A stretch of 64,000 nt of DNA from Selenomonas ruminantium subsp. ruminantium ATCC 12561 (lineage in GTDB: Bacteria > Bacillota > Negativicutes > Selenomonadales > Selenomonadaceae), in NCBI RefSeq assembly GCF_000424065.1, contig NZ_AUJE01000016.1, positions 1 through 64,000 on the forward strand, in the 5' to 3' direction. Position 1 is the first letter of the stretch. Each line of letters starts with the position of its first letter. Under the pieces are notes generated by a model that was not told where the DNA came from, did not search any database, and saw only the letters and a program-made list of their open reading frames with translations. This document shows, piece after piece, positions 38,443 through 60,500 of this stretch. The position numbers and the translations under genes were made by a program.

Positions 38443-39975
38443 TCAAACATTCATCAATGTATTAGCATATTTCAACACATTTACTTTCTCGACAGCATCC
38501 TTGTTCCCCACGATATTTGCTCCTAATGCTCCGGCAATATTGCCCATAAGCAGGCTTACTTCTTTAGGAACGCGCACAGCCGCATAAATACCAGCTATCG
38601 CATAGAATGCATCACCTGCTCCCACGGTATCCTTTACCAGCAGTGTAAATGCGGGACAGGATTGGAATTCCCCGTTTTGATAGCAGCAGGCTCCATCCGA
38701 ACCTCTTGTCAGCCATCCCTCTGTTCCCAGATGCTCATTCAACTTTCGCAAGGCCCTTTCCTCGTTCTCAGCCAGTTCGGGATATGCTAATCGCAATTCT
38801 CGTTCATCTAAGCTAAAAGCATCTGCATGGTGATACTTGGTGATAAGATTCATCCCATAATTTGATGAGTTTGTCTGGCAGTTCAGTACAAGAAAATTCG
38901 CCTTTTCCTGCAGTAACTCTGCCATTTCTTCATCAATAAGCCCATGACCAAAATCACAAAGAAATACCACATCATACTCAGGCAGCTTTTCTTTTAAGGC
39001 ATTCATCAGCTTGATTCGAGATTCCCCAGCTAATTTTCGTCCCTTGGCTATATTATTCACAGCAAAGAGTTTCCGATACTCTTCCCGTTTAGCGTTCCGC
39101 ACCAAATAACGCTGTTTTACAATTGTAGGCTGTTCCGCACTAGTAATAATCTGCAATTGCATTTGCTCCGCTAAATCTTTATGCAGCCGATCCTGTATGG
39201 CATGTTCATTACCTATCATGGAAAGCAATGTTACATTCGGTGTAAAGCTTGCCAAATGCCTTGCTATTGCAGCAGCGCCGCCTAAATATTCCTCACTGGA
39301 CTCAATACGAGCTGAATAACCCATATCCTTACTCATAAGTCCTTGAACATCACAGTAGGTATATTTATCAATGATTATTTCCCCTATAACCAAAACCTTC
39401 AAGTTCTCAACCTGTTCTGACCATTGCAGGATATCTTCCATCCCATATCTTTTCTTGAATTCCTGCATATAGGTACAAACTTCTTCTGAAAGACCTGAAA
39501 GCCCTCTATTAATCAATTTTGTCGAGCTGAAAACCTGGCCACCTGTGAAACGCAGCCTGCCTCCATGGCTCTCCACCAGTTCCCGTTCTTCCCGTATCTT
39601 TCCAGTCATATCCGCAGATTCATCTGCGTATTCACTGCCTTTGACATAAAAATCCGGTTCTACAACTTCAACAATGTCATCCACGGTATATCCTTCAGAT
39701 AGCAGCACATAATCCACACATTCTAAAGCTGCCAAAAATTTAAGCCGCATATCATCGTTAAAGTAGGGACGACCAGGCCCTTTACGAACATATTTTGCTG
39801 ATGTAATGGATACGACTAGCACATCTCCCATTTTTTTTGCCTGTTCCAAATGGATGATATGTCCCGGATGTACCAAATCAAAAACGCCATGACATAGTAC
39901 AATCTTTTTATTTTCCTTTTTCAAAGCAGGGCGAATCACCGCTTGAAAATCTGCCTTGCTTACAACCTTTCCCAT
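38443..39975 (-). CDS. HldE-like bifunctional nucleotidyltransferase/kinase, domains in reversed order
   Basis: About 510 residues. The N-terminal 160 residues are a cytidylyltransferase-type nucleotidyltransferase with HGVFDLVHPGHI (residues 29-40) and a KYVRKGPGRP loop. From about 175 on is a PfkB/ribokinase-type kinase with VIGEIIIDKY and DTVGAGDAFYA, the anion-hole and catalytic Asp. E. coli HldE has kinase first and transferase second; here the order is swapped. Together the domains could phosphorylate and activate a heptose phosphate as an NDP-sugar. Neighbouring GmhA-like and epimerase genes support this. Start at 39975 after GAGGTG. Confidence 0.85.
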   Translation of the reverse strand: MGKVVSKADFQAVIRPALKKENKKIVLCHGVFDLVHPGHIIHLEQAKKMGDVLVVSITSAKYVRKGPGRPYFNDDMRLKFLAALECVDYVLLSEGYTVDDIVEVVEPDFYVKGSEYADESADMTGKIREERELVESHGGRLRFTGGQVFSSTKLINRGLSGLSEEVCTYMQEFKKRYGMEDILQWSEQVENLKVLVIGEIIIDKYTYCDVQGLMSKDMGYSARIESSEEYLGGAAAIARHLASFTPNVTLLSMIGNEHAIQDRLHKDLAEQMQLQIITSAEQPTIVKQRYLVRNAKREEYRKLFAVNNIAKGRKLAGESRIKLMNALKEKLPEYDVVFLCDFGHGLIDEEMAELLQEKANFLVLNCQTNSSNYGMNLITKYHHADAFSLDERELRLAYPELAENEERALRKLNEHLGTEGWLTRGSDGACCYQNGEFQSCPAFTLLVKDTVGAGDAFYAIAGIYAAVRVPKEVSLLMGNIAGALGANIVGNKDAVEKVNVLKYANTLMNV

Positions 39976-40014
39976 GAAACCACACCTCAATATCAGCAAA
40001 ATGTCCGTTATCAC

Positions 40015-41007
40015 TTACCCTAAATACTTAAACCAATCTTTAGTCGCATCCTTTATCGTCTCCGGTGTCCACACAGGGGCTTTGCGCCAATAATCAATAT
40101 TATCTAAAATATGCTGCACACCTTCCTCCAAGGTTACTTTTGGATGCCAGTGCAACATTTGATTGATTTTCTGCGTGTCAGCCCAAGTACAATCCGGCTC
40201 TCCGGGACGTTTCGGAATATGCACGACTTCCGCATCTTTACCGCCCAAAAGTTCTACCAAACGATTAACCGAATAAGTATGTTCGCTGCCTACATTAAAT
40301 CGTTCTCCCACGACATCCGATTGTGCTGCAGTATAAAACGCATCCACAATATCTGTAACGTAGGTAAAATCTCGGGTCTGCTCCCCTGTTCCCACTATGG
40401 TATAAGGCTTCCCTGCCAGCTTTTGCCCTAAAAATACACCAAAAACTGCACCATAAGTACCAGACGTACGCGAACGTGGGCCATAAACATTGAACAAGCA
40501 AAGCGAAACCACCGGCAATTTGTAGACTTTGCTCCAATGCAATGCCAATTCTTCACCCAAACGCTTGGTCAAAGCATAGGGATATTCAGGACGAATATCT
40601 GCCAGCTCATCTGTCGGAAATTTATCCGGAATACCATAGCAAGAGGAAGACGCTGTATAGAGAAATTTTTTCACACCTGCTTTATGCGCTGCTTGTAATA
40701 CGGAAAACGTACCATCCACATTGGAATGGAAATAATCTTCCGGACGTTGAATGGACGGAACAATATCTGCCAAAGCCGCCATATGAAACACCCAGTCAAC
40801 ATCTTGAAATAGCGGCATAATTTTTTCATGATTGCAGATATCTTCCTGCACAATAGTAAGTCTTTCATTATCTTTATGATGCGCAAGGTTTTCCAACCGC
40901 CCTGTACTACAATTGTCGATAACGCATACTTCGTGCCCTTCGGCCAGCAATCGATCCACCATATGTGAACCGATGAATCCACAACCTCCTGTTACCAACG
41001 ATTTCAT
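40015..41007 (-). CDS. NAD-dependent epimerase/dehydratase (NDP-sugar)
   Basis: About 330 residues from the ATG at 41007. Extended short-chain dehydrogenase: TGGCGFIGSHM, then HMAALADIVPS, ASSSCYG and the catalytic pair in YPYALTKR, NVYGPRSRTSG, and RDFTYVTDIV. Related to UDP-glucose 4-epimerase and HldD-type enzymes. In this cassette it likely acts on the activated heptose or related sugar. No GmhB phosphatase gene is seen, so the exact route stays open. Confidence 0.85.
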   Translation of the reverse strand: MKSLVTGGCGFIGSHMVDRLLAEGHEVCVIDNCSTGRLENLAHHKDNERLTIVQEDICNHEKIMPLFQDVDWVFHMAALADIVPSIQRPEDYFHSNVDGTFSVLQAAHKAGVKKFLYTASSSCYGIPDKFPTDELADIRPEYPYALTKRLGEELALHWSKVYKLPVVSLCLFNVYGPRSRTSGTYGAVFGVFLGQKLAGKPYTIVGTGEQTRDFTYVTDIVDAFYTAAQSDVVGERFNVGSEHTYSVNRLVELLGGKDAEVVHIPKRPGEPDCTWADTQKINQMLHWHPKVTLEEGVQHILDNIDYWRKAPVWTPETIKDATKDWFKYLG

Positions 41008-41024
41008 ATGATTCCCCACCTTCT

Positions 41025-41597
41025 TTAAAATTTTGCTCCATCCCGCTCCAAAATCGTGTCTACCACCTGCTGAAGGATGATGGTATGAATGGATTCAACT
41101 ATCCCATATTTATTACAAGGAACATAGACATTGATGTCACCTTTCTGTTTTGCCTTGTTATCCGAGTCAAACCCCGTAAATGTAATGACAAAACCTTTTT
41201 TCTCCTTTACCGTATCAATAGCACTGATAATATTGGAAGAGTTTCCTGAACTGCTAATCGCTACAAGCAAATCTCCCTGTTTCGCCCAAAAAGCCAACGG
41301 ACGAGAAAAAATATTTTCATAACCATAATCGTTGCTCATACATGTCATCACGGCATTGTCATAGAGACTATAGGTATTCATGCCACCGTTTTTCATAAAA
41401 TCTGCAGTCATATGACTAGCAATGGCAGCGCTGCCACCATTGCCAATAAAAAAAATCTGGCTGCCAGCCTGTTTATATTTGGTAAACGCATTTACCAAAA
41501 GCTGCACACCATCTTCATATGAAGAACATGTTTGACAACCTTGCAAAAACTCTGTAGCACGAAGTTTTTCTATCAATCGCTGAATATATGATTTCAT
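41025..41597 (-). CDS. GmhA-like sedoheptulose-7-phosphate isomerase (SIS domain)
   Basis: 190 residues, the GmhA length, with a single SIS domain. GNGGSAAIASHMTADF (residues 53-67) and the loop SSSGNSSNI are the phosphate-binding motifs, and the C-terminal HTIILQQVVDTI helix carries the His used in isomerisation. It should convert sedoheptulose-7-phosphate to a D-glycero-heptose-7-phosphate. The transketolase pair in the same operon can make sedoheptulose-7-phosphate, which supports a self-contained heptose pathway. Confidence 0.85.
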   Translation of the reverse strand: MKSYIQRLIEKLRATEFLQGCQTCSSYEDGVQLLVNAFTKYKQAGSQIFFIGNGGSAAIASHMTADFMKNGGMNTYSLYDNAVMTCMSNDYGYENIFSRPLAFWAKQGDLLVAISSSGNSSNIISAIDTVKEKKGFVITFTGFDSDNKAKQKGDINVYVPCNKYGIVESIHTIILQQVVDTILERDGAKF

Positions 41598-44091: not shown

Positions 44092-45324
44092 ATGCGTAAA
44101 CATTACTTCCGTTGTTCACACACGCAATCTTGGGAAAGCACCGAAATCGAGGCCATTCAAAAAAAATTATTCATGGAAATGGAAAATTTCGTAGGTGATA
44201 TTCGTGGAGAAACCGATATCCCAGGGTTAAGGATTGATTTCAACGTTGGATTGCGCATGGATATCCCAGAGGGAGATTTCCATGTGCGCATCAGCAATGC
44301 GGATAGTCTGGAAATTTACTTCGAAGACAATTTGTCCGCTGTCCGTCTTGTATCTCTGGAAAAATATGCTATCCCTTGGCAGATTGATGTATGGGAAACC
44401 GGCAAGCATATTTTTTCCCACACATTCAATCCACTAGGGCAAAATATAGTTTTTCACTGCAGCAGTCAGGCAATTGGCGACACCCTGGCTTTTTTGCCAT
44501 ATGCCCGCCTCTATCGTAAAACCTACAACTGCCAAGTATACTGCTGGGTCGATAAAAGCCTGAAAGAATTCATATCCTTTCTCTATCCTGATATACCTCA
44601 AGTAACATCTATTGATGATGATGTGTATGCCGCCTATTATTTGGGTACGTGGACAGCCGGCCCTTATGGGGCACCGTTTAATGGTTATCTCTATCCGCTC
44701 TGGATGGCTGCGGGGCCATTGGTCGGTCTTAACGGCCTGGCGCCAAAAGTTTTCAAGACCTTCAATACGCCACCGCCAATAAAAGAGCCCTACATATGCA
44801 TCGGTGTGCAGGCCTCCACGCCCCGCAAGGGCTGGCTGTATCCCAACGGCTGGAATATATTGGTACATGAGCTCAAGAAAAAGGGATATCGCGTATTGTG
44901 TATAGACCGTCATACTCTGACCCGTGCAGATGATATTGAAATCATATGTCCTCAGGAAGCAGAAGATCTAACCGGCGATATCCCTTTAATGGAGCGGGCA
45001 AAACTACTTAGCCATGCCCAATGCTTTATCGGCCTTTCCAGCGGTCTTGCCTGGGTTGCTGAGGCCGTTGGCTGCCCTGTCGTAATAATAAGCGGTATAA
45101 CAGAAGAGTTTTATGAATTTCCTACGCCTTACAGAGTGATAAACCGACTTGTATGTCATGGTTGTTTCAATGACAGCAAAATAAATTTTATGCATGATGA
45201 TATATGTCCTTATCATCATGGCACTGAACGTGAGTTAGAATGTTCCAAAAATATCACCCCCGCTGCTGTTTTAAGCGTCGTCAACAAAGCTGCGAATCAC
45301 CAGCACACACCCTATGCAGGATAG
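44092..45324 (+). CDS. Autotransporter-type O-heptosyltransferase (TibC/Aah family)
   Basis: 410 residues with the full pattern of the autotransporter strand-loop-strand O-heptosyltransferase family: FNVGLRMDIPEG, the SAVRLVSLEKYAIPWQIDVWE-type strand-loop segment, FHCSSQAIGDTLAFLPY, YCWVDKSLKEFISF, GVQASTPRKGWLYPNGW and LSSGLAWVAEAVGCPV. Near the C-terminus CHGC, CPYHH and ECS supply the four Cys that bind iron in this family. These enzymes transfer heptose from ADP-heptose to Ser residues of autotransporter adhesins in the cytoplasm. A heptose-type cassette lies just to the left; no autotransporter gene is in the window. The last 44 bases overlap the convergent opine dehydrogenase gene. Confidence 0.9.
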   Translation: MRKHYFRCSHTQSWESTEIEAIQKKLFMEMENFVGDIRGETDIPGLRIDFNVGLRMDIPEGDFHVRISNADSLEIYFEDNLSAVRLVSLEKYAIPWQIDVWETGKHIFSHTFNPLGQNIVFHCSSQAIGDTLAFLPYARLYRKTYNCQVYCWVDKSLKEFISFLYPDIPQVTSIDDDVYAAYYLGTWTAGPYGAPFNGYLYPLWMAAGPLVGLNGLAPKVFKTFNTPPPIKEPYICIGVQASTPRKGWLYPNGWNILVHELKKKGYRVLCIDRHTLTRADDIEIICPQEAEDLTGDIPLMERAKLLSHAQCFIGLSSGLAWVAEAVGCPVVIISGITEEFYEFPTPYRVINRLVCHGCFNDSKINFMHDDICPYHHGTERELECSKNITPAAVLSVVNKAANHQHTPYAG

Positions 45325-46342
45325 CATAGTCTCGCCCATTCGCTCGGTAATCCATATTCATGATTTGTTCAGCTAAATCTATAATGAGTGATATACATGG
45401 TGTTTCTACGCCTATAGTTTTCCCTGCACTCTCAAAAGCCACTAATCCTGTGGGCACATCTTCCTCAATATATCTGTGGTGCATAGAACGCGGTGCATCT
45501 ATTTTCCGATAGGCTTCATTATCACGCAAACATTGATAAAGATTTGCGCCCTTCGCTCCATAAGTTCTCCTCAACCAATCGCTAACGCTTTCTATAGGAT
45601 GTCCTAATGCCTTTGCTACTGCCAAACGCTCCACATCTATTTTTTCTATAAATGAAGCAATCGTAGGAGTTATTCCTTCATAATAATATTTAAAATCCAC
45701 CTTTTCATTTTCCACCCATCCTATATTGAACAGCAACGGAGCACAATGGAGTACCATTCCTACGTTATTTAATGTAACTGCCAAATAATCATCTACAGGA
45801 TGAAAATGTGAACGCAAAACCTCTGGCATACGCTGCCAAGCCTCTACAGCCTTGTTTTTTTGAAAAGTTGTCATCTGCACATCTTTTTTTAGTGCATAAA
45901 GCACTACTTGATTACTGCTATCTCTGCGGCAAGTATATACAATGGTCTGAGTTTCCACAATAAGTGGAAGTTCCTTACAGCCATTTCGTTGTAGTTCAAG
46001 CGCAAATTCCCATGCACCAAATGTTCTTCCAGGATTAAGCACCACTAAATATCTAGAGCTCATATAAGGTGCCAATAATTTCGCCACATCACGATGTGCT
46101 GAAGATGGAACTGTGACCATTATCTGTTCTGCAATCACATCCTGGATATCCGTAGAAACTTTAGCAATCCGCGCATTCTTCTCATATAGGCCACTACACT
46201 TTATCTCGCCTGAATTCAAAATTTCTGCTATATGTGATGACGTACGATTCCACAAGCCCACCTCACAGCCAGAAAGAGAAAGATGTGCTGCCATAGTCAG
46301 CCCCTGATGACCAGCACCGATCACACAAACTCGACTTTTCAT
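45281..46342 (-). CDS. NAD/NADP opine dehydrogenase-family protein
   Basis: 353 residues from the ATG at 46342 after AAAGGAG. N-terminal Rossmann motif VIGAGHQGLTMAAHL, VLNPGRTFGAWEF, and an all-helical C-terminal domain with NNVGMVLHCAP and the HHRYIEEDVP segment, matching the octopine/nopaline dehydrogenase fold. Such enzymes reductively join an amino group to an alpha-keto acid. Here it follows a cobalamin-dependent mutase-like gene and an ATP-grasp gene, suggesting a step in making an unusual N-substituted amino acid or amide. Substrates unknown. Confidence 0.83.
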   Translation of the reverse strand: MKSRVCVIGAGHQGLTMAAHLSLSGCEVGLWNRTSSHIAEILNSGEIKCSGLYEKNARIAKVSTDIQDVIAEQIMVTVPSSAHRDVAKLLAPYMSSRYLVVLNPGRTFGAWEFALELQRNGCKELPLIVETQTIVYTCRRDSSNQVVLYALKKDVQMTTFQKNKAVEAWQRMPEVLRSHFHPVDDYLAVTLNNVGMVLHCAPLLFNIGWVENEKVDFKYYYEGITPTIASFIEKIDVERLAVAKALGHPIESVSDWLRRTYGAKGANLYQCLRDNEAYRKIDAPRSMHHRYIEEDVPTGLVAFESAGKTIGVETPCISLIIDLAEQIMNMDYRANGRDYAILHRVCAGDSQLC

Positions 46343-46359
46343 AAGCAAAGTCACTCCTT

Positions 46360-48024
46360 TCAACCAATCCGGCATCTATACTGATGATTACGCAACAGTT
46401 TTTGCAATCGTTCCTGCTCAGTCATTGTGTTTCCGTTCTCATCACAAGCCAGACACATTCCTTTTTCTAATTTTGTCCGCAAAATACCGCGAAATTTTTC
46501 ATTTTTCTTAATATGTACCGCATCTATAAATCCTTTTTTTATGCAATCAGCCAGCACTTCAGGATTTGTTAGTGGATTATCGTATTCGGAATACATCTCC
46601 TCGATAAATGATAACAAAATCTTCGCTTCAGATATCAGCTCATTTTTTCTCTCTAATACCCGATCATCTTGCTCCATAGAAAATTTTTCTCCTAATGTTT
46701 GCCTTATTACCCCTCTGACTATTTTGCAGCTTTCAATTACTTCATCCGCATTTGCTGCATGATCAGCCTCACAAAATCCTACTACATGTACTATTTGGGG
46801 CTTTACAGCCATCTGCATAAATGTAGATGCTGCCAGCTGTCCTTTAGCTACATTGGCATCTGCATTAAAAAGTGCCAATCCCGCTCTGGTTTCCCTATAT
46901 ACATGAAAATCCTTATCTACTAAAGATTCTACCAATTCAATCATAGCCAATATTTTAGCAAAATCCATCGAAAAAGATAGCCCTTGAGGATTATTAAACA
47001 TATATTGTGCTATGTAGTGCTTAACCCCCATGTGTTTAGCATTTAATGCACTTATATATGCCATTGCCACAGGAATTACATCATGAGCATCACGCAACCC
47101 CCAATGGTGAGGTTCATTAATCTCCACGGGAACCCCCTTTTGAGCATGCCATCGTATCAATGCCTGTGCTTCACACAAAGAAGTTTCCAGTTTACGCGTC
47201 CCCCGGCCATCCATTTCATTGTACCAACAAAGAGGCACAGCTGCCCATGCATTATTTATGGTTTCCAAAAGCAACTTAGCACAGTCAAATACATCCTCAG
47301 TGCCGCTATAGCAGCGCATCAAAGGATAGTTTCCCTTTTGTGATGCCGTTTTCAATGCCTTTAAATCGTCCACTGTACGAATTGGCACACCGCCAGCTCC
47401 ATCAAACTCTGGCTTCATTCGCTCTGGATGAAAAAAGAATTGTTGTGCATTTTGATCTGGTCCCAAAGATATAACATCCAGCACTCCAGCTTCCGCAATC
47501 TTGCCTATTCCTTGTATTGTCTCTTCCAATAAAGGCCGACCAAAATGATGACGAATTAAAGGGTATGGTGCTATTTCATGAATACGTTCCAGTAGATTGT
47601 CCTGATAAACTCTTTTACTCTCAACTACTCCCATACCTCGCAAATATCGCAACGAATCAGACACATCGTCATATCCATCGGAAACAAAGCTAAAATACCC
47701 CTCACGTCTTGCTAAATCAGCTACAGGTTTTGTTCCACCAAAACACCATTCAGGATTGTATGAAAGCCTTTCGCGACGTTTTCTCACCTCAAGCAGCAAT
47801 GCTTCAGCGCTCCTTAAAGTCAGGCGGTAGCCAATCGCTACAATATCCGGCCGCAATTCTTCAATTTTTGCGAAAAGAACTTCGATATCAACGGCTCCGC
47901 CCAAAAATATCGTTTGATATCCCTCTTCACGAGCCAAATCAAGAAAATGTATAGGCCCTGCCACATGAACACAGTTGCCAATTTCAGCTCCTAAAATCAT
48001 TTTACCCAATTTATTTTTTCTCAT
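46360..48024 (-). CDS. Cobalamin-dependent mutase-like protein (B12 domain plus glutamate-mutase-E-like barrel)
   Basis: 554 residues. The N-terminal 120 residues fit a B12-binding domain: His20 in CVHVAG stands where the family has DxHxxG, RLT (67-69) stands at the SxL site, and Gly96-Gly97 gives the GG at standard spacing. The usual Asp of DxHxxG is Cys18. Residues 130-480 resemble the glutamate mutase epsilon subunit TIM barrel (SLGPDQNAQQFFFHPE, RTVDDLKAL, EINEPHHWGLRDAH). In glutamate mutase these are two proteins; here they are one. Likely carbon-skeleton rearrangement of an acidic amino acid, but not necessarily glutamate. Overlaps the ATP-grasp gene by four bases. Confidence 0.78.
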   Translation of the reverse strand: MRKNKLGKMILGAEIGNCVHVAGPIHFLDLAREEGYQTIFLGGAVDIEVLFAKIEELRPDIVAIGYRLTLRSAEALLLEVRKRRERLSYNPEWCFGGTKPVADLARREGYFSFVSDGYDDVSDSLRYLRGMGVVESKRVYQDNLLERIHEIAPYPLIRHHFGRPLLEETIQGIGKIAEAGVLDVISLGPDQNAQQFFFHPERMKPEFDGAGGVPIRTVDDLKALKTASQKGNYPLMRCYSGTEDVFDCAKLLLETINNAWAAVPLCWYNEMDGRGTRKLETSLCEAQALIRWHAQKGVPVEINEPHHWGLRDAHDVIPVAMAYISALNAKHMGVKHYIAQYMFNNPQGLSFSMDFAKILAMIELVESLVDKDFHVYRETRAGLALFNADANVAKGQLAASTFMQMAVKPQIVHVVGFCEADHAANADEVIESCKIVRGVIRQTLGEKFSMEQDDRVLERKNELISEAKILLSFIEEMYSEYDNPLTNPEVLADCIKKGFIDAVHIKKNEKFRGILRTKLEKGMCLACDENGNTMTEQERLQKLLRNHQYRCRIG

Positions 48025-49238
48025 GAATATATCTCCCGTAACATGACATTTCTTCCATGTTCATCATACACCTCAGCTTGTTGTAAAAATTTTTTTTCTT
48101 TCTCCAGTAGGAGATTCATATTCCGCGCCTTAACAAGTACTCCTGCTACGCGGTCACTACTTGTTTCAGCTTTTTCTATATACGATCCCATTTTTTTATA
48201 CTGGAATAAATCATCTATGATTCCATCTTTCCATAATTGATTTAGATTCATACCTGAAAAAATGCCCTTATTCATATAAACATAATTTACATGAATAACA
48301 TCATCTCGTAATGATGGCAATGGACAAACAACCTTTTTTCCTATGGACATATCCAAATATAATTGTACAATATCTATTCCTGACATCTCTTCAATCAATC
48401 TATACTTTGTCCCACCGCCCATACGAGCACTAAATTCTAACACAAAAATATTATCATCTTGCACTACCATTTGCAAAAGAAGAGGCATATCAGCTAGGTC
48501 AAATGCTGTTGCAATAGAAGCTGCAATATCAAGAATACGTGTAATAACCTCATTAGATAAATCCAATGGATATTCACTCTGTATAATGGTAAAACCATCT
48601 TTACCTGAAATTTTATTTGTCTTACTCAATCCAAGCAGTATAGGATTTTTCCCATTTAACCAAACATCAACAGATATTTCCTGTCCATCCAGATATTCTT
48701 CTACTAATACCATCCCTTTGCGGCTTAAAGAAAAAGCATTTCTTACAGCAATTAGATAATTATCGCTTCGATTCACTTTACGTACACCTTTAGAACTATT
48801 GCAATCAACTGGCTTCACTACAACAGGCCAAGACAATGGTTGTTTTAAATCTGAAGTCATAGAACCATCAATAAAAAAAGCCTTCGCTGTCGGGATTCCA
48901 TTTAACAGCATACGTTTTTTCATCTCTACTTTATTGGTTACATTCAAAGCCTGGTCATATGAAAGATAACTATACAAACCCAATTTTTCTGAAACATACG
49001 CCATAGTCAACAATGCTTGATCCGTACAAGCCGTTAATACTTTATCTACATGTTGTTGTCTAGCTAAATTTAATATAGCATCACAATCTAACGTGCTAAC
49101 TTGATAAAATTTATCTGCCGCCTTAGCTGCCATAGGTTCGTCATTATAGTCAGCTAAAAGTACTTCCCACCCCATTGTCTTCAATGCTTTTATAAAAGCT
49201 ATCTGATCATAACCTCCAGCCAAAAACAGACATTTCAT
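48021..49238 (-). CDS. ATP-grasp ligase
   Basis: 405 residues from the ATG at 49238. N-terminal Rossmann-like strand CLFLAGGYDQ, VVVKPVDCNSSKGVRK for ATP binding, MVLVEEYLDGQEISVDVW and the C-terminal metal site VLEFSARMGGG. Belongs to the carboxylate-amine ligase group that makes amide or peptide bonds with ATP. With a cobalamin mutase-like protein and an opine dehydrogenase it may activate an unusual acid and attach it to an amino sugar or amino acid. Substrate unknown. Confidence 0.88.
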   Translation of the reverse strand: MKCLFLAGGYDQIAFIKALKTMGWEVLLADYNDEPMAAKAADKFYQVSTLDCDAILNLARQQHVDKVLTACTDQALLTMAYVSEKLGLYSYLSYDQALNVTNKVEMKKRMLLNGIPTAKAFFIDGSMTSDLKQPLSWPVVVKPVDCNSSKGVRKVNRSDNYLIAVRNAFSLSRKGMVLVEEYLDGQEISVDVWLNGKNPILLGLSKTNKISGKDGFTIIQSEYPLDLSNEVITRILDIAASIATAFDLADMPLLLQMVVQDDNIFVLEFSARMGGGTKYRLIEEMSGIDIVQLYLDMSIGKKVVCPLPSLRDDVIHVNYVYMNKGIFSGMNLNQLWKDGIIDDLFQYKKMGSYIEKAETSSDRVAGVLVKARNMNLLLEKEKKFLQQAEVYDEHGRNVMLREIYS

Positions 49239-49334
49239 ACTAACCACCTTCCACCTCTATAAAATGTAAGTCATAAAGCTGCAATATTTGACAACTCGTT
49301 TTAACATGGCGTTGGATGAAAACTTATTTTTTAT

Positions 49335-50294
49335 TTACCACGTAATTCCTGCATCCATTCGTCCTTGAAAATATTCACGACAATAATTCAAAAACTTTTG
49401 AACATTATTTTGATTATGCACATTAAAACCTTTTATTCTTTCTTCTAATTTCTTATATGTATTACGGGCAAACTCCAGTTCATCAGGTGTAGTTCCATAA
49501 GCTACTCCCCAGCCTTTTTCCCCTTCACTTAGATAGTCTTCACGTTTTTTCCCTGGTTCAGGAATTACTATAGATATACAGCCACAAATAGCTGCTATTG
49601 TTGTATAAAAAGTCTGCGTGTCGAATGAATAGCAATATTTGCATTTATTCATTATTTTGACTTTTTCTTCGTCTGATAAGTTATCTAGAATTATGCCAGG
49701 AACCGTTGAAGGTAAATCTTTACGACTACATCCCTTGCGAACAATATAGCAGTTTCCTTCCCGATGTCCATAGTTCCATCTCTTATACAGATCATAATTA
49801 AAATGATGAAGCTGTACTTCGCGCCCCATTGGATTCAACTGATAATCATTAAATATTTGTCGATAGCAGATAAACATATCATCTTTATCGTATGGCTGCG
49901 CACCTACATAATCACCCTTGAATTGATAAAAGCTAAGAAACCACCTTACCACATGCTTGGCACCTAACGGATTACCAAAAATAACTTCGGGATAAACTAC
50001 TATAGTATCATCATCAACATAAGGCCATGTGGTAAACACGCAACCTTTAACCGCTCCATCTTGACGATCTAGTTTTTGCCTTGGTATTTTATTTGTAAAC
50101 GGTAAATATTGTTTCAGGCATTCCTGCCTTGTGGCAGGATAATTGACATCTATACGCGTTAAAAAAATCTTGGCATCATAACCTAAATCAGCTAACATTC
50201 GGCACAATAGATGCAAAACAATAGGCCCTCCCCATTTTTGTGGTGGTGATACGATTAAAAAACGTGGTCGGCGGCTCTGTTTCTTCATGTTCAT
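49335..50294 (-). CDS. Glycosyltransferase-like protein, WavE/GT-B type
   Basis: 319 residues. RFLIVSPPQKWGGPIVLH at the N-terminus and a C-terminal Rossmann-like half with IMNKCKYCYSFDTQTFYTTIAAICGCISIVIPEP, where an acidic/aromatic loop before a helix resembles a GT-B nucleotide-sugar site. Its ATG overlaps the stop of the DegT gene. Family assignment is weak. Probably transfers the sugar made by the DegT aminotransferase. Confidence 0.55.
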   Translation of the reverse strand: MNMKKQSRRPRFLIVSPPQKWGGPIVLHLLCRMLADLGYDAKIFLTRIDVNYPATRQECLKQYLPFTNKIPRQKLDRQDGAVKGCVFTTWPYVDDDTIVVYPEVIFGNPLGAKHVVRWFLSFYQFKGDYVGAQPYDKDDMFICYRQIFNDYQLNPMGREVQLHHFNYDLYKRWNYGHREGNCYIVRKGCSRKDLPSTVPGIILDNLSDEEKVKIMNKCKYCYSFDTQTFYTTIAAICGCISIVIPEPGKKREDYLSEGEKGWGVAYGTTPDELEFARNTYKKLEERIKGFNVHNQNNVQKFLNYCREYFQGRMDAGITW

Positions 50295-51427
50295 CCCTCT
50301 TTATTACCTAATTGCAATTTACTTTTAATGATATCACAAATTCTATCTACATCTGCCAAAGCCAAATCTGCATAAAGTGGCAATGTCAACACCCGTTTTG
50401 AAAAATATAATGCCACGGGCGTATCGCCTTCAGTGAAACGTTGACGATAGCACTCAAATTGACTAGTCAGTGGATAGAAATATTTTCTAGAGTATATCTC
50501 ATGGGCAGCCAGTGTCATATAAATTTCATTTCTCGTCACACCTAAAACTTGCTCGTCGAAAACTACTGGAAAATAGGCATAGTTATATTTCACATCCGGC
50601 TGTACAACTGGGAGTTTTATACCTGAAATATCCTGCAGACATTCACGATATCTATCCACTACACGCTTGCGTTTTGCAATTTCTTCATCAATATGCCGCA
50701 AGTTGCATATTCCCATAGCAGCACAAAACTCATTCATCTTAGCATTAGCACCTACACCATCTACTTCGGTTTCGCTGCGAATACCAAAATTTTTCAAGCG
50801 AAATAAAGATAAACCAAACTCATTTAAACGGTCAGAATAGCAAACCGCCCCGCCCTCAATGGAATTGAATACTTTCGTTGCGTGAAAACTGTAACAGCTA
50901 ACATCGCCAAATGCAGCTACGCTATTTCCTCGATAAGTCTCTCCAAAAGTATGTGCAGCATCATACAAAACAACCAGACCATATTTATCTGCAATACGTT
51001 GAATTTCTTCTACCTGACAAATATTGCCATATACATGTACAGGTACTATTGCTGATGTTCGATCTGTAATTAGCCGCTCCAATTTTTCTGTATCTATTGT
51101 ATAATCATCCGGCCGAATGTCGCAAAATACAGGTGTCAAACCATTACGGACAATGGCATGTGTTGTTGAAGCAAAGGTAAACGGAGTTGTAATTACCTCA
51201 CCTGTTAATTTCAAAGCTTGTAATGCTAATTCCAAAGCCATATGCCCATTCACCATCAAATGCATATGTTCTACGCCCAGGTATTCCTGAAGCCGATGAC
51301 GAAACTTTTCATGTTTCGCTCCCATATTCGTCATCCAATGCGTTTCCCAAATGTCTTTTATCTCTTCAATGTACTCTGACAATTCAGGCATTGACGAACG
51401 TGTCACGTAAATCTTCTGTTTAGACAA
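50291..51427 (-). CDS. DegT/DnrJ/EryC1/StrS sugar aminotransferase
   Basis: About 378 residues; start uncertain. I use TTG 51427 after AAGAAGG, but the frame is open to 51448. Motifs: MVNGHMALELAL, TTPFTFASTTHAI, VLYDAAHTFG with the PLP Asp, and CYSFHATKVFNSIEGG with the Schiff-base Lys. Pattern resembles dTDP-4-amino or 3-amino-dideoxyhexose transaminases. It heads the ATP-grasp/mutase/opine dehydrogenase cassette, so its amino sugar may receive the acyl group made there. Confidence 0.87.
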   Translation of the reverse strand: MSKQKIYVTRSSMPELSEYIEEIKDIWETHWMTNMGAKHEKFRHRLQEYLGVEHMHLMVNGHMALELALQALKLTGEVITTPFTFASTTHAIVRNGLTPVFCDIRPDDYTIDTEKLERLITDRTSAIVPVHVYGNICQVEEIQRIADKYGLVVLYDAAHTFGETYRGNSVAAFGDVSCYSFHATKVFNSIEGGAVCYSDRLNEFGLSLFRLKNFGIRSETEVDGVGANAKMNEFCAAMGICNLRHIDEEIAKRKRVVDRYRECLQDISGIKLPVVQPDVKYNYAYFPVVFDEQVLGVTRNEIYMTLAAHEIYSRKYFYPLTSQFECYRQRFTEGDTPVALYFSKRVLTLPLYADLALADVDRICDIIKSKLQLGNKEG

Positions 51428-51520
51428 TATTCCCGCCTTCTTTCTCAATCGATTATAAATATTATTGTATTCCGGCTTATTTTAATTCATTTTCAGATTT
51501 TGAACAACAATACCCAGCCG

Positions 51521-52490: not shown

Positions 52491-55379
52491 CTATCCACCA
52501 GTATACTGCAAATGTTGATTAACAATATAAGCACTGATATCTAATAGTTCCGTATCCGCTGGAATTATGCCATAATCAAGACCTTTGGTATCAATCTGTC
52601 CAAATCGTGCTATATAAAGCTTATCTGCTATAGCAATATCTCCGCCATTTTCCTTTTGTATATTTATTGCTTCTGTTATCACAGGCTTTTTATCTAATCT
52701 GACCAAAGGACGTGCCAATATGAACTTATCTCTATTAGCATAAGGTTGATATGGAGCAAATAAACCTGTTGCTATGGCATATGTTTGTTTAGCCGGAAGC
52801 TTCTCTATAATTTGACGAACATAATTCATCGATTCCTGTGGCAGGATAAAATCTGTTGCCTTCAATTTTAAAATATAATCAACGTCTGCATCAAAATCAT
52901 GGATATTCAATGATTTTTTGTGGAGGATTAGAGGCAATCCTTCATTCTCCAACTTATGCAGGATGTTTTGAACACTTTCTGTTGCAAAGCGTTCGTCAAT
53001 AATGATCGCATCCGTAAATGTAAGTGTGTGACGAATAAAACTTTCAACCACATCGCTCTCATCAGCCACTGTAACCACAGCAATAATCTTCTTATTTGCT
53101 TCAGGAATACATTTCTGATAACATGAATTCCCCGTCCAGAATTTCCACCAGCCTGATTCTATTTCTGCGATTAATGTTTTCATTTCAACGTAATCATACT
53201 TGCACAAATGAGGTATCAACGTAACCAGCAAATTCCATAGAATGGGACTAAAATTGTTGTCATTTATCCCTCTATTAATACCTATTGATAATTTACGTAA
53301 ATAGAGTTCCTTCCATAATTTGTTATATTTGTCCTCATATTCTACAGCCCTCCACATACAAACTAACTCCTCCATGTTATGATACCAGCCCGAATGGCCC
53401 TCCTTGTATCGCAACAACCAGTCATCCAACAATGACAATGCTTTATTCAATGTCCCATTACGATACGCGCCCCACAGGATACGCATATTTACAGTTGACC
53501 TTGTCGCCAGGTAAAGTTTCATGCGAGGGTATGCTTCCTTGCCAGAATGGGGAATTTTACTGAAATCAAAACCATAGCTTTCAATAATCTCTTGCCAAAA
53601 ATCATAATCCAAATTATACCAGTCATGACAGCCAAACGGGCGCCATCCTTGCTGCATTCGCTTATGTGCATGGGCAACATTTGCCTGAACGGCGAATTCG
53701 GCGGCAATTTTTAGCGGAGCCGTCTTAAAAAACAATGTTTTCTGCCTACCGCAATACCCCCAAAACAAATCCTCCCACTGCATGAATAAATTTACGAAAG
53801 GACTGCCTTTCATGATATCATTCCACTGTCGAAGCATGCGAATTGCAGAAGCTATTTTTCGCAAAGATAAGCCGCCATTACCCGTTTGGGCATCAATCGC
53901 ATGCCAGACTGGATTGAAGCGCGATACCGGTGCACCAATATAATCATAGTCCATGGCGCAGAATTCTTTTAATCTATCACTGAAGACAAACGCATCAGTC
54001 TGATAGATCAACAGATATTTATATTGAGTGAAACGCTGATAAAACTCCACATTCAACATCAAGGCACTGTAACTGGTAACATTGTTAAAAAAATAATCTG
54101 GGAACCGTTCAATCCCAACCCCTGCTGCATATTCCTGATAATCAAACTCCAAAGATGCAGGCGCCACAAATACACGTGGATATTTGCCCAAAACATGATT
54201 CAATTGTTTTAATGAGGCTTTCTCAAATGGAGATAACTCTTTTTTATACACGGGGATGCATATAATCACTTCCTGATCAGGCGCTATTCCCGTTGCACGT
54301 GCAATCTCTGTTTTTTCCGCCCCTCCCCATTTCTCTTTCGATATACAGGCTGCATAACATGCAGCTATTTTTGCTGCATCCTGACGGCCTTTCATCATAG
54401 CTATTCTGGCATAACGGGCGTAGATAATCCCCATGCTTTCTGCATTGAAATATCCATAATCATTTTTTTCCCGTTCTGTAAATTCATATTTATCGATGCA
54501 TTGCGAGAGCATTCTGTATGCTTCACCATAGCGGCCCATACTGCTGAGAATAATCCCCTGTTCCCCATAGAACTCTGGCATATCCGGGAATTTCTTTATT
54601 GCCTGTTCTGCCACAAGAGTCATTTCCTCAGCCGGATATTTACGTTGCCGCATGGATTCCAATAAAATATGATAATAATTAGCCTCTTCACGATAATGAC
54701 GCACTGGAGAAGCAATCGCTTTTTTTATATAATCAATAGCCTTTTCATATTCCTGCAGGCCAAAGTAGGATTCTGCAATATAGTAGTAATAAGCATCCCG
54801 CTCACCATTCTGTTCTACATCTGCCAGCAACAGTTGCAGATTCCGCTGAGATTTTCTTTCCATATTGTCAGGGTGATATCCCGTATGGATAAAAATCATA
54901 TTTTCTGCGAAAATATAATCTATATCCCCATCCTTTTTTTTGAGTTGTTCATGTATCACTCCTTGATAATATATATCCGGACGATTGCGAAATATACGTG
55001 GCACATGTATCGGCGGATTCTTCATTTGATGAGCCTCATATCTTGGAACTATCACCGCATCTTTTTGTGGATATTTCGCATCAACCTCCTGTAAATAATC
55101 CCGAATGGATAGCGAACAATCATAATATTCATCAGCATCCAGAAATATTATCCAATCCCCTGTTGCCTTACTGAGCGTAAAATTTCTAGCTAAGGAAAAA
55201 TCATTCTGCCATGTGAAATAATCTATTTGGGCTCCATATTTTTGGGCAATGGCTATGGTATTATCCGTGGAGCCCGTATCAACCACAATCAACTCATCAT
55301 ATATCCCTTGCAAGCTCAAAATAGATTTTCCGAGATTTTGTTCTTCGTCTTTAACTATGTAACAAGCTGAGATTCGCAT
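52491..55379 (-). CDS. Multidomain GT2-TPR-DUF5672-like protein
   Basis: 962 residues. Residues 1-230 are a GT2 domain (RISACYIVKDEEQN, VVDTGSTDNT, FLDADEYY). A TPR region follows to about 360. From about 375 comes a domain with IICIPVYKKE, KYLLIYQTDAFVFSD, the DYIGAPVSRF block and GNGGLSLRK, which matches DUF5672-type glycosyltransferases. The C-terminal 200 residues hold a second GT2-like half (IIAVVTVADESDVVESF, IDERFATE). Perhaps three transferase centres in one chain. Donor sugars unknown. Start after AAGGAG. Confidence 0.82.
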   Translation of the reverse strand: MRISACYIVKDEEQNLGKSILSLQGIYDELIVVDTGSTDNTIAIAQKYGAQIDYFTWQNDFSLARNFTLSKATGDWIIFLDADEYYDCSLSIRDYLQEVDAKYPQKDAVIVPRYEAHQMKNPPIHVPRIFRNRPDIYYQGVIHEQLKKKDGDIDYIFAENMIFIHTGYHPDNMERKSQRNLQLLLADVEQNGERDAYYYYIAESYFGLQEYEKAIDYIKKAIASPVRHYREEANYYHILLESMRQRKYPAEEMTLVAEQAIKKFPDMPEFYGEQGIILSSMGRYGEAYRMLSQCIDKYEFTEREKNDYGYFNAESMGIIYARYARIAMMKGRQDAAKIAACYAACISKEKWGGAEKTEIARATGIAPDQEVIICIPVYKKELSPFEKASLKQLNHVLGKYPRVFVAPASLEFDYQEYAAGVGIERFPDYFFNNVTSYSALMLNVEFYQRFTQYKYLLIYQTDAFVFSDRLKEFCAMDYDYIGAPVSRFNPVWHAIDAQTGNGGLSLRKIASAIRMLRQWNDIMKGSPFVNLFMQWEDLFWGYCGRQKTLFFKTAPLKIAAEFAVQANVAHAHKRMQQGWRPFGCHDWYNLDYDFWQEIIESYGFDFSKIPHSGKEAYPRMKLYLATRSTVNMRILWGAYRNGTLNKALSLLDDWLLRYKEGHSGWYHNMEELVCMWRAVEYEDKYNKLWKELYLRKLSIGINRGINDNNFSPILWNLLVTLIPHLCKYDYVEMKTLIAEIESGWWKFWTGNSCYQKCIPEANKKIIAVVTVADESDVVESFIRHTLTFTDAIIIDERFATESVQNILHKLENEGLPLILHKKSLNIHDFDADVDYILKLKATDFILPQESMNYVRQIIEKLPAKQTYAIATGLFAPYQPYANRDKFILARPLVRLDKKPVITEAINIQKENGGDIAIADKLYIARFGQIDTKGLDYGIIPADTELLDISAYIVNQHLQYTGG

Positions 55380-57593: not shown

Positions 57594-60500
57594 TTATTGC
57601 GTATGTCCTTCTGCTAATTCCTGATAATACGCCTCCAGGCAGCGAGTATATTTCACCGGCGATAATGCATCGCTTTTTTTCATCATCTGCCGCAAATTTT
57701 TATGCAATAAATTCAATAATTCAATATTGCCAGCCAAGGAAATGACACGTTCTATATAGCTTTCCTTGTCAGAAGCTGCCAGTTCTTCCAGTCCTAAACT
57801 GCTCAATATACTATAACCGAAGCGCGTATTGCGCCGCTCTCCATATAGTGACACTACCGGACACCCCATGTAAAGTGCATCTAAGGTCGTACTCCCCCCG
57901 GTATAAGGATAGGTATCCAATATAATATCTACATCCAAATACCGCTCCATATAATGCTCGTCCCCGGCTTCCAGCACCACCCTTTCCATGGGAAATCCCA
58001 TCTTTTTCAACCTTTGGGCAGCAGCCTTGCGCAAGGAGGAGCTTTCAAACGGGATACTTTTGAGGAGCAGCCTAGCCTGAGGCAGTTTTTCTAAAATTAT
58101 ACGCCACAACTGTAGAATATCATCATTCAGCTTGCGGTATTCCTGAAAAGAGGCCAACTGTATATAGCCTTTATTTATAGCAGGCGTTCCTAATGATTCC
58201 GGTACATCATTCCGTCCCACATAAGAAAACTGTGCGGGCATATATAGCGGTTTCTCTACAAAATATTCATCATGCATGCCGGGGGGGTCTACAATTCTGT
58301 CCGTCAGATAAAAGTCCACTGCCTTGAATCCTGCCGTGCAAAGGCTGCCAAGTCCGGAAATTTGTATTTCTGCAGGCCGATAAGCTAGGATAGGCAGGCC
58401 GCTGCCACAAGAATGACTAGCCAGATCTACCAGAATATCAATATTGGCCGCTCTGATCTTCTGTGCCGCTTCTTCCAGCGGCAAGCCCGACAAGATATGC
58501 CATTCACCAGCTCGTTCTTTTAATGATTCCGTGTAACCATCACTTTTTTCATTCAACTGAAACCCGACCACAGTAAACTGCTCCCGCTCATAGCAGGCGA
58601 AAAGACCGTAATAAATGGGAAACATGGCATGACGACGAAAATCCGGAGACAGATAGCCAATCCGCAGCTTAGTTCTTCGCATTTTTTTTGACACAGTTGA
58701 TGCCAATGGCTTTATCTTCCCAATCTGCTGCACATAATACTGCTGCCGCTGCCAGATTTCAGCAGAGCTGTAAGGTAAATAGTGACTCGCCAACAAATAC
58801 GAACTGATTGTATCCAGCTGCTCTGCCAGTCCCACATCACAACGACTAGCCTTAAGATACTCCTGCTCGCATTCCTTAAGATAGCACATAGAAGCAGCAC
58901 TATCAGCACAGGCGATATGCACCTGCCATTGCAATGCAGCGTCCATATTCTCCGTGCCTTGTTCCAACAAATTGACTGCTTCATGTGCTGCCTGATAGCG
59001 TAAGACAAAATCTCCCAGCCGTCCAGCCCGTTCACTTAGATAAAGCAATTGTTTTATCTGCTGTGAGGATGCCTTCGCAGCTAGGTGGATTTTATCCACG
59101 GGACGATTCTCCAGCATTTTCTCATAGGCTTGTTCCATGCGCTGAACGTATTTGGCCGGCGATAAGGCATCACTTTGCCACATCATCTGGCGCAGATTTT
59201 TATGTAATATGTCCAATAATTCAACATCATGAGCCAGTACTACTGCGCGGTTGATATAGGCTTCTATGCTGTCCACAGCCAATTCCGCTAAACCTGCACT
59301 ATGTAAAATACTATATCCGAAACGAGTATTGCGCCGTTCTCCATAAAGACTCACCACCGGGCATCCCATATAAAGCGCATCCAGCGTTGTACTGCCGCCG
59401 GTATAGGGATAGGTGTCTAAAACGATATCGAAGTTCAGATACCGCTCCATATAATCATGCGTAGCCCCTTCCCAATCTACCCGCTCCAAAGGAAATCCCA
59501 GTGTCTTAAGCCTGTTTTTTGCTTCTTCCAGCAGGCTTTTGCTGTAAAAAGAAACACTTTTCAACATGAGTCTTGCGTTGGGAACCTGTTTCAGTATCTC
59601 TTTCCATGCCAGCAGCATCTCATCATTCAGTTTGCGATAATTTTGTACCACCGCAAACTGGATGTACCCTTTTTCCTTGCCGGGCGTACCGGCCGAAGCC
59701 GGCAAATCGTCTGCTCCGGCATAGGAAAACTGTGCCGGCATATATAATGGCTTTTCCACAAAATAACGGTCATGCAGACCTAGCGGATCCACAATTTCAT
59801 CCGTAATATAATAATCCACCGCCGAAATTCCCGCTGTACACAGGCTTCCCAAACCAGAAATCTGTACTCTGGCCGGCCGATAAGCTAAAATGGGCAGACC
59901 TGTATTGCTGGAATGACTAGCCAAATCCACCAGAATATCAATGGCATCTGCCCTTATCTTCCGGGCCGCTTCCTGCCTGGATAAGTCATGGATATCGTAA
60001 TATTCATCCGCCAAAGAACGAATCATGTCCGTATGTCCATCGCTATCACTGTTCAGCTGATAGGCAATGACCGTAAAACGTTCCTTGTCATAACAGGCAA
60101 AGAAACCATAATAGATTGGAAACATCGCATGACGCCGAAAATCCGGAGACAAATAGCCTACCCGTATTTTCCCCTGAGGCTTTCGGGGCGGCAATGCAGG
60201 CAAAGGCGTGATATTTTCCGCTATCATCTGCGCATATACTTGCTGTCTCTGCCATATCTCTGCTGTGGTATAAGGCTTGTAATGGCAAATCAGCAAATAG
60301 GCACTATAGGTGTTCAGCTTTTTGTCTATGTCGGTCACACAAGCTAATGCAGCCAGATATTCCTGTTCCGCTTCATCATAAATCCCTAAATCTACAGCAG
60401 CATGCGCCAGCGAATTATGCATATTCAGCAGCCAAAAATCAGGCAGTTCTTCCCTGTTCCCCTTGAGCATATCCACAGCTTCCCGGCTGGCACGATAACG

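What the first reader, a model, noticed from the sequence alone, without database searches (positions are those of the whole stretch)
45281..51427. Opine dehydrogenase + cobalamin mutase-like + ATP-grasp + GT + DegT cassette
Five minus-strand genes, most of them overlapping by four bases, combine a sugar aminotransferase, a possible transferase, an ATP-grasp ligase, a B12-dependent carbon-skeleton mutase-like protein and an opine dehydrogenase. Seen: gene order, overlaps and motifs. Known: what each family does. Inferred: the set makes an unusual amino acid-like acyl group (mutase rearranges an acidic amino acid, opine dehydrogenase joins it to a keto acid), which the ATP-grasp enzyme attaches to an amino sugar from the DegT enzyme. 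I know of no described pathway with this combination.
Basis: partly seen in the sequence, partly recalled or inferred. Interest (0 to 1): 0.82.

Follow-up and report, generated by a model that had tools for sequence, protein, structure and literature searches.

The report
Opine dehydrogenase–B12 mutase sugar-decoration cassette
A bacterial sugar-coat gene cluster carries a conserved enzyme pair, an opine-making dehydrogenase and a vitamin B12-dependent mutase, which probably build an unusual acidic building block that is then attached to an amino sugar.

Summary
The five genes are real and intact; two of four junctions overlap by four bases. P0002 is a one-chain adenosylcobalamin-mutase relative: B12 domain (ligand His in 108/108 rows) plus a glutamate-mutase barrel (VIA Z 29.1 to GlmE), but GlmE's three substrate-binding arginines are replaced by other conserved residues, so its substrate is probably not glutamate bound as in GlmE. 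P0001 is an opine dehydrogenase with the Arg/Gly pair that, in published mutants, selects L-Asp over L-Phe. The two form a conserved module: 60 of 62 mutase genes in 299 phylum genomes, and 78 of 80 loci elsewhere, lie beside such a dehydrogenase; none of 16 canonical glutamate-mutase loci does. An ATP-grasp gene adjoins the pair in 15 of 78 loci. P0002 falls in one clade of ten, nine with sugar genes nearby, from Bacillota and Actinomycetota; ATP-grasp, mutase, dehydrogenase and DegT recur together in L035, L041 and, with a divergent mutase, L115. Best reading: an opine-type acid, reshaped by the mutase, is joined by the ATP-grasp enzyme to a 4-amino-4,6-dideoxysugar. Substrates, order of steps and attachment are inferred. 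My searches of open-licence papers found no description of the pair.

The parts
50291..51448 (-). P0005, DegT/DnrJ/EryC1/StrS sugar aminotransferase, probably a C4 transaminase giving a nucleotide 4-amino-4,6-dideoxyhexose
   Evidence: Pfam PF01041 5.7e-95; best NCBIfam hit DesI TIGR04427, 304.7 bits, below its 650 cut-off; best PDB chain 2po3 at 5e-60, listed as '4-dehydrase' (that 2po3 is DesI is recalled); four RmlB hits over cut-off elsewhere in the genome
49335..50294 (-). P0004, unnamed protein, probably a GT-B type glycosyltransferase (judged from its conserved C-terminal stretch by eye)
   Evidence: no Pfam/NCBIfam hit; homologs in 2 further genomes of 299, one of them (L164) near a DegT and an ATP-grasp gene; fold prediction failed, pLDDT 38
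48021..49247 (-). P0003, ATP-grasp ligase, probably carboxylate-amine
   Evidence: Pfam PF13535, PF07478; NCBIfam and PDB relatives include PylC and L-amino acid ligases
46360..48024 (-). P0002, one-chain adenosylcobalamin-dependent mutase (by fold and motif)
   Evidence: model pLDDT 85.6; GlmE 1cb7_B VIA Z 29.1 over 371 residues; family alignments
47629..48015 (-). B12-binding domain of P0002 (residues 4-132); His20 and Gly23 of the DxHxxG motif kept, first position Cys
   Evidence: VIA Z about 15 to B12-binding proteins over model residues 4-132; His20 and Gly23 in 108 of 108 rows
46390..47610 (-). TIM-barrel catalytic domain of P0002 (residues 139-545), glutamate-mutase epsilon fold
45281..46375 (-). 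P0001, opine dehydrogenase with the acidic-amino-acid signature (R117, G206) and the NADPH-type Arg (R44)
   Evidence: 1bg6 at 2.3e-60; R117, G206, H210 and D306 in 78 of 78 rows, R44 in 73; PMC10787698 sections 28 and 30

Best explanation
The cassette makes an N-acylated amino sugar whose acyl group is an unusual opine-type amino acid. P0001 condenses an acidic L-amino acid (aspartate- or glutamate-like) with a keto acid, most likely pyruvate, using NADPH, giving an N-(1-carboxyethyl) amino acid. P0002, with adenosylcobalamin, rearranges the carbon skeleton of that opine. P0003 activates a carboxylate of the product with ATP and joins it to the 4-amino group of the nucleotide 4-amino-4,6-dideoxyhexose made by P0005; P0004 or a neighbouring glycosyltransferase then transfers the sugar. 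Shown here by computation: gene content, conserved coupling of dehydrogenase and mutase, mutase fold with a changed substrate site, acidic-substrate signature, recurrence with ATP-grasp and DegT. Inferred: substrates, order of the first two steps, ligation to the sugar, transfer.
For: Coupling: 60 of 62 mutase genes in 299 genomes lie within 6 kb of a dehydrogenase homolog (one cut-off for both queries); 78 of the 80 kept loci of a second collection, both exceptions at contig ends; 0 of 16 canonical MutE loci, with flanks of at most 1.5 kb. Mutase: GlmE fold, VIA Z 29.1; profile match to MutE E 6.1e-6, 3e-10 in global mode; B12-ligand His in 108/108 rows; MutL domain fused in two homologs (L116, L117) and a MutL gene in one operon (L160). 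Changed site: GlmE R66/R100/R149 align with H160/Q194/Y239, arginines sit two residues earlier at R158/R237, E330 kept as E419 (claw from passages of PMC10947579). Dehydrogenase: R117+G206 in 78/78 rows match Arg/Gly of hot-spring enzymes that prefer L-Asp and L-Glu with pyruvate (passages) and lose L-Asp for L-Phe when both are swapped. ATP-grasp adjoins the pair in 15 of 78 loci. Clade of ten on one branch, SH-aLRT 100; sugar genes near nine of the ten. ATP-grasp, mutase, dehydrogenase, DegT in a row in L035 and L041; the same four kinds in L115, other order, one gene between. Precedent: alanopine on 4-amino-4,6-dideoxyglucose in Providencia alcalifaciens O35 (passage in PMC10609480). Supply: three CobA/BtuR-type adenosyltransferase hits and four RmlB hits over cut-off in the genome.
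Against: No substrate or product is known. Most loci of the pair lie outside the sugar clade. No MutL over cut-off in this genome. 23 of 299 genomes have a dehydrogenase homolog without mutase. Within the clade the set is uneven: DegT at 60% only in L035, L040 and L041, weaker ones in L065 (32%) and L104 (24%), no hit in L036, L037 (contig ends), L038, L039; L039 has no ATP-grasp hit either and none of three neighbours scanned is a sugar gene. In L040 the ATP-grasp genes lie 4.5 and 7.3 kb off and organic-acid transporter genes (CitMHS, DctM) stand among the set, which would also fit uptake of the acid. L164 has DegT and P0004 relatives with another ATP-grasp and no pair. The neighbouring ATP-grasp enzymes belong to different subfamilies. 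P0005 is below the DesI cut-off.
Confidence: 0.45

Rival explanations
1. Mutase first: P0002 rearranges a free acidic amino acid (for instance glutamate to a 3-methylaspartate-like acid) and P0001 then joins that amino acid to pyruvate; the rest as in the best explanation.
For: Fold of glutamate mutase; the published dehydrogenases prefer L-Asp and L-Glu, and a 3-methyl-Asp would be an Asp-like substrate (inference).
Against: The three arginines that hold glutamate in GlmE are replaced by other conserved residues and E171 has no conserved partner; G174 has both a canonical MutE (L133) and a P0002 homolog, so there the family is not simply the glutamate mutase.
Confidence: 0.27
2. Amide chemistry unrelated to the amino sugar: the ATP-grasp enzyme joins the product of the pair to another amino acid or amine (pyrrolysine-like logic: mutase, ATP-grasp ligase, dehydrogenase), and DegT is only a neighbour in the sugar island.
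For: P0003 hits PylC weakly (53 bits) and amino-acid ligases; outside the sugar clade a Ddl-like ATP-grasp gene sits beside the pair in L048, L064, L068, L073, L074, L101, L105, L106 and L160.
Against: DegT stands with the other three genes in the window and L115 (one family) and in L035 and L041 (Lachnospiraceae); L164 has DegT near an ATP-grasp without the pair.
Confidence: 0.17
3. A catabolic pair: P0001 runs as an oxidase of an imported or recycled opine and P0002 prepares the released acid for degradation.
For: Dehydrogenase homologs without mutase stand beside a glutamate-symporter relative in three of four loci scanned (L150, L152, L154), one of them with an RpiR regulator (L150); CitMHS and DctM transporter genes in L040; a YheO-type regulator before the pair in T. 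wiegelii (L080).
Against: The window genes sit in a biosynthetic glycan island with an ATP-consuming ligase; I saw no degradation gene adjoining them in the genes scanned.
Confidence: 0.08

Closest known systems
Coenzyme B12-dependent glutamate mutase (GlmES/MutES, PF06368 epsilon chain)
   Same: TIM-barrel fold; B12 domain with the ligand histidine; E330 kept as E419 (its adenosine-side role is recalled); MutL fused or in the operon in some relatives
   Different: B12 domain fused at the N-terminus in one chain; arginine claw R66/R100/R149 and E171 not kept; nearly always beside an opine dehydrogenase
Arthrobacter N-(1-D-carboxylethyl)-L-norvaline dehydrogenase (1bg6) and the hot-spring mODHs of PMC10787698
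   Same: octopine dehydrogenase family (PF02317), His-Asp dyad; Arg/Gly acidic signature and Arg for NADPH as in most mODHs
   Different: paired with a B12 mutase; substrate not measured. Whether the mODH genes have a mutase neighbour could not be checked
Alanopine-bearing 4-amino-4,6-dideoxyglucose of Providencia alcalifaciens O35 O-antigen (reference 48 and a table row in PMC10609480)
   Same: an opine amide-linked to a 4-amino-4,6-dideoxysugar is the kind of product proposed
   Different: alanopine should need no mutase (inference); its genes were not compared here
Pyrrolysine biosynthesis (PylB, PylC, PylD)
   Same: same three kinds of step: mutase, ATP-grasp ligase, dehydrogenase (recalled)
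   Different: PylB is a radical-SAM enzyme and PylD another dehydrogenase (recalled); P0003 scores 53 bits against PylC's cut-off of 248

Membership tests
Glutamate mutase epsilon chain | glutamate-mutase TIM-barrel fold | tested here: met
   1cb7_B VIA Z 29.1, rmsd 3.1, 371 aligned; the next different enzyme, lysine 5,6-aminomutase, 27.5
Glutamate mutase epsilon chain | score over the PF06368 cut-off | tested here: not met
   P0002 has no PF06368 hit at E 0.01; two relatives reach 30.6 and 27.0 bits against 26.6
Glutamate mutase epsilon chain | arginine claw R66, R100, R149 for glutamate | tested here: not met
   aligned residues H160 (107/108), Q194 (108/108), Y239 (108/108) by profile alignment; claw residues from passages of PMC10947579
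Glutamate mutase epsilon chain | separate sigma (B12) subunit | tested here: not met
   B12 domain is residues 4-132 of the same chain
AdoCbl-dependent mutase, base-off/His-on class | DxHxxG cobalamin-ligand motif | tested here: met
   His20 and Gly23 108/108; the first position is Cys in 102 (P0002 too), Asp in 4, gapped in 2; the two gapped rows, L115 and L118, read D-x-H-x-x-G. So the ligand is kept, the Asp mostly not
AdoCbl-dependent mutase, base-off/His-on class | binds cobalamin and catalyses a radical rearrangement | not testable with these tools
   needs protein
PLP/B12 aminomutases (lysine 5,6-, ornithine 4,5-) | conserved PLP lysine in the B12/Rossmann domain (recalled) | tested here: not met
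   no lysine among the positions conserved in 97% or more within residues 1-132
Opine dehydrogenase (PF02317) | family score and His-Asp dyad | tested here: met
   PF02317 157.2 bits against 30; H210 and D306 in 78/78 rows, aligned with 1bg6 202 and 297 (that these are the dyad is recalled)
Acidic-amino-acid opine dehydrogenase subclass (mODH) | Arg at ArODH position 111 with Gly at 198 | tested here: met
   R117 and G206 aligned to 1bg6 111 and 198, 78/78 rows; signature from PMC10787698 section 28
DesI (dTDP-4-keto-6-deoxyglucose C4 aminotransferase) | NCBIfam equivalog cut-off 650 bits | tested here: not met
   304.7 bits, the best of its hits
Pyrrolysine ligase PylC | NCBIfam equivalog cut-off 248.3 bits | tested here: not met
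   53 bits
Glycosyltransferase GT-B (P0004) | GT-B fold | tested here: inconclusive
   model pLDDT 38, not searched further
Alanopine-Qui4N pathway of P. alcalifaciens O35 | homologous gene set | not tested
   its genes were not fetched

The most novel reading that the evidence does not exclude
The dehydrogenase and mutase are two steps of an undescribed pathway found in many anaerobes: an opine is formed from an acidic amino acid and pyruvate, and an adenosylcobalamin mutase rearranges the opine itself, a radical reaction on a secondary-amine tricarboxylate for which I know no precedent. ATP-grasp ligases of several kinds then use the product, one branch for a new class of N-acyl groups on surface sugars.
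Probability: 0.4. Interest if true: 0.88.

Novelty: new variant of a known kind. Interest (0 to 1): 0.75.

Why it matters
Few kinds of B12-dependent carbon-skeleton mutase are known (recalled), and a separate branch with a changed substrate pocket and a near-constant partner enzyme would be a new reaction to find. The partner's specificity can be read from published mutants, which narrows the candidate substrates to a handful and makes the function directly testable. In the sugar clusters it predicts a class of opine-type decorations on surface sugars of anaerobes that the annotation libraries used here would miss (P0002 has no NCBIfam or PF06368 match).

Tried and rejected
Plain glutamate mutase: rejected as the simple reading because the claw residues are replaced and P0002 has no PF06368 hit. 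PLP aminomutase: no conserved lysine in the B12 domain. Chance neighbourhood: rejected. P0004 by fold: model unusable, no search made with it. P0002 relatives on viral contigs (by short patterns from one sequence) and plasmids: none found at those sensitivities. Clusters c8 and c27 look like antisense ORFs chosen by my ORF picker (inferred from strand and place, not checked one by one); the dehydrogenase count was therefore redone with tblastn. The first co-occurrence count was uneven: three weak dehydrogenase rows had been kept because they lay beside a mutase while other weak rows were left out; one search repeats it with one cut-off (E 1e-15) for both queries and replaces it. Rows dropped before that count: second fragments of the same mutase gene, and all hits weaker than 1e-15. 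The ATP-grasp count is partly circular, since its profiles were built from genes found next to the pair; it covers the 78 of 80 loci in which the ORF picker found a gene of the pair. The genome-contig scan kept the best 80 of 452 relatives, so its counts describe the closer relatives only. The 108 rows hold some sequences twice (through A1 and through loci); the tree left out the A1 rows and L116 and L117. One search took dehydrogenase ORFs over 300 residues, P0001 included, plus seven chosen loci. Literature: searches gave no paper; one search gave one, on insect symbionts, unrelated by title and abstract start and not opened; others (20 of 1,524 listed; 20 of 42; 12 of 84; 10 of 28; 7 of 8) were seen as listings. 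None of the 10 listed holds both an opine/octopine-dehydrogenase term and a B12 term; the other 18 were not seen. Opened: PMC10609480 (passages), PMC10787698 (passages, sections 28 and 30) and PMC10947579 (passages).
Full report
What is there. Five open minus-strand genes, 51448-45281, in the order DegT aminotransferase (P0005), unnamed protein (P0004), ATP-grasp (P0003), B12/mutase (P0002), opine dehydrogenase (P0001). Pfam supports all but P0004. Two of four junctions overlap by 4 bases, one by 16, one has a gap of 87. The surroundings are a glycosylation island: GT2+DUF5672, GT2, GT9 and GT41 proteins upstream, and a TibC-type heptosyltransferase with heptose-type sugar genes (SIS, PfkB/cytidylyltransferase, epimerase) downstream.

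The mutase. P0002 has no NCBIfam hit and only a weak B12-binding hit in Pfam. Nineteen homologs are 46-53% identical to it. The model (pLDDT 85.6) matches glutamate mutase best: 1cb7_B by Foldseek at 4.8e-15 and by VIA at Z 29.1, rmsd 3.1, 371 residues, with lysine 5,6-aminomutase, the next different enzyme, at 27.5. Residues 4-132 match B12-binding domains at Z about 15. Profile comparison with ten canonical MutE sequences gives E 6.1e-6; with larger alignments 2.3e-7 local and 3e-10 global. In 108 aligned rows (some sequences entered twice) His20 and Gly23 of the ligand motif are invariant; the first position is Cys in 102, Asp in 4, gapped in 2, and those two rows (L115, L118) read D-x-H-x-x-G just beside. 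Two homologs of over 1200 residues carry a MutL domain in the same chain (L116 4.9e-81; L117 7.5e-82), and the L160 operon has a separate MutL gene (4.2e-168). That MutL is the glutamate-mutase reactivase is recalled.

A changed substrate pocket. Passages of PMC10947579 name R66, R100 and R149 as the claw that holds glutamate, and E171 and Y177 as further contacts. My MutE alignment has arginines with the same spacings (25, 59, 108), which fixes the offset of 41. Their partners in P0002 are H160 (107/108), Q194 (108/108) and Y239 (108/108); in the first and third case an arginine sits two residues earlier (R158, R237, each 108/108), where MutE has glutamine; E171 has no conserved partner; E330 is kept as E419 (108/108). 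This rests on a profile alignment at low identity, not on model coordinates. I read it as an adenosylcobalamin mutase for an anionic substrate other than glutamate.

The dehydrogenase. P0001 is closest to Arthrobacter CENDH 1bg6 (2.3e-60). PMC10787698 reports hot-spring enzymes that prefer L-Asp and L-Glu with pyruvate (passages); all have Arg at position 111 and Gly at 198 (ArODH numbering), and swapping both residues switched preference between L-Asp and L-Phe in both directions tested (section 28); Arg at 35 goes with acceptance of NADPH (section 30). By the alignment these are R117, G206 and R44 of P0001. R117 and G206 occur in 78 of 78 rows, R44 in 73.

A two-gene module. Over 299 genomes of the phylum, with one cut-off for both queries, 62 mutase genes were found and 60 lie within 6 kb of a dehydrogenase homolog; in G418 the two lie apart, and the G314 match covers only residues 433-543. 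Genomes with both 60, mutase only 1, dehydrogenase only 23, neither 215; of 98 dehydrogenase genes 60 stand beside a mutase, 38 do not. In the second collection 78 of the 80 kept loci have the two genes within 400 bases on one strand, 44 dehydrogenase-first and 34 mutase-first; in L082 and L091 the mutase lies at a contig end. None of 16 canonical MutE loci, with flanks of at most 1.5 kb, has such a dehydrogenase. In four genomes of one family the dehydrogenase, without mutase, is followed by a 446-455-residue protein, a glutamate-symporter relative in three of the four.

Third partner. An ATP-grasp gene adjoins the pair in 15 of 78 loci: 15 of 76 neighbour genes against 7 of 913 other genes in the loci (Fisher 5e-13; partly circular, see Tried and rejected). 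They are of more than one kind: Ddl-like enzymes outside the sugar clade (L048, L064, L068, L073, L074, L101, L105, L106), and P0003-like or more distant ones in it. L160 has dehydrogenase, Ddl-like ATP-grasp, thioesterase, MutL and mutase in a row. The product is therefore probably a carboxylic acid that is activated with ATP (inference).

The sugar clade. P0002 and nine sequences (L035-L041, L065, L104) form one side of a branch with SH-aLRT 100, from Bacillota and Actinomycetota (quick method, no bootstrap). Sugar genes stand near nine of the ten: the window, L035 and L041, L036, L037, L065 and L104 (glycosyltransferases), L040 (UDP-GlcNAc 2-epimerase) and L038 (genes clustering with the scanned ones of L041); in L039 three neighbours scanned are not sugar genes. 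Eight of the nine relatives have an ATP-grasp relative in the locus, seven next to the mutase; L035, L040 and L041 have a DegT at 60% identity to P0005, L065 and L104 a weaker one, the other four none that hits P0005. L115, from the window's own family, has the same four kinds of gene with a divergent mutase: DegT 67%, ATP-grasp 40%, dehydrogenase 52%, mutase 33% over part. Only 4 of 151 genomes of the family, the own one included, gave any P0002 hit, two of them weak, so the cassette is patchy and probably mobile (inference). L164, from another genome of the family, has P0004 (68%) and DegT (66%) relatives with a different ATP-grasp and, in the 18 kb taken, no hit to mutase or dehydrogenase: the acyl supply seems exchangeable.

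How it most likely works. See Best explanation. The precedent for the end product is the alanopine-bearing 4-amino-4,6-dideoxyglucose of P. alcalifaciens O35, seen only as a table row and reference in PMC10609480. The genome has four RmlB hits over cut-off, three CobA/BtuR-type adenosyltransferase hits, no PduO-type hit and no MutL over cut-off.

What stays open. Substrate, product, order of the first two steps, and attachment. P0004 remains a probable glycosyltransferase on the look of its sequence alone (fold failed). I found no description of the pair in print: searches gave no paper, and the listed parts held none (open-licence PMC papers only, listings capped).

Noticed in passing
window 38443-41597 and 44092-45324: Heptose-type sugar genes (PfkB+cytidylyltransferase, epimerase, SIS isomerase) beside a TibC-type O-heptosyltransferase over its NCBIfam cut-off (331.8 against 200 bits): a likely protein O-heptosylation set.
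   Followed up: no
window 57594-62501: 1635-residue protein with six matched stretches of GT41 (OGT-like) plus a GT1-type match: an unusually long multi-domain glycosyltransferase.
   Followed up: no
window 52491-55379 and L164 6746-8089: DUF5672, in one chain with a GT2 domain in the window, is also next to the P0004 relative in another genome of the family.
   Followed up: partly
L116 1739-5383, L117 4306-8007: P0002 homologs of 1214 and 1233 residues with a MutL domain in the same chain and an opine dehydrogenase gene beside them.
   Followed up: yes
L160 4876-10744: Apparent operon: dehydrogenase, Ddl-like ATP-grasp, 4HBT thioesterase, MutL, mutase.
   Followed up: partly
L149, L150, L152, L154: Dehydrogenase homologs without mutase, each followed by a 446-455-residue protein, a glutamate-symporter relative in three of four: perhaps an opine uptake or use locus.
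   Followed up: partly
L040 5542-6819 and 12705-14051: Organic-acid transporter genes (CitMHS; DctM of TRAP type) among the ATP-grasp, DegT, mutase and dehydrogenase genes.
   Followed up: no
L153 5007-6818: Mutase gene split into two ORFs (in-frame stop), next to a dehydrogenase at 48% identity to P0001: a decaying copy or an assembly error.
   Followed up: no
G000 contigs C26 and C56: Two CobA/BtuR-type hits of equal length and nearly equal score (183.9 and 183.2 bits): possible recent duplication.
   Followed up: no
window 45281-45324: The dehydrogenase gene and the convergent TibC-type gene overlap by 44 bases at their 3' ends.
   Followed up: no
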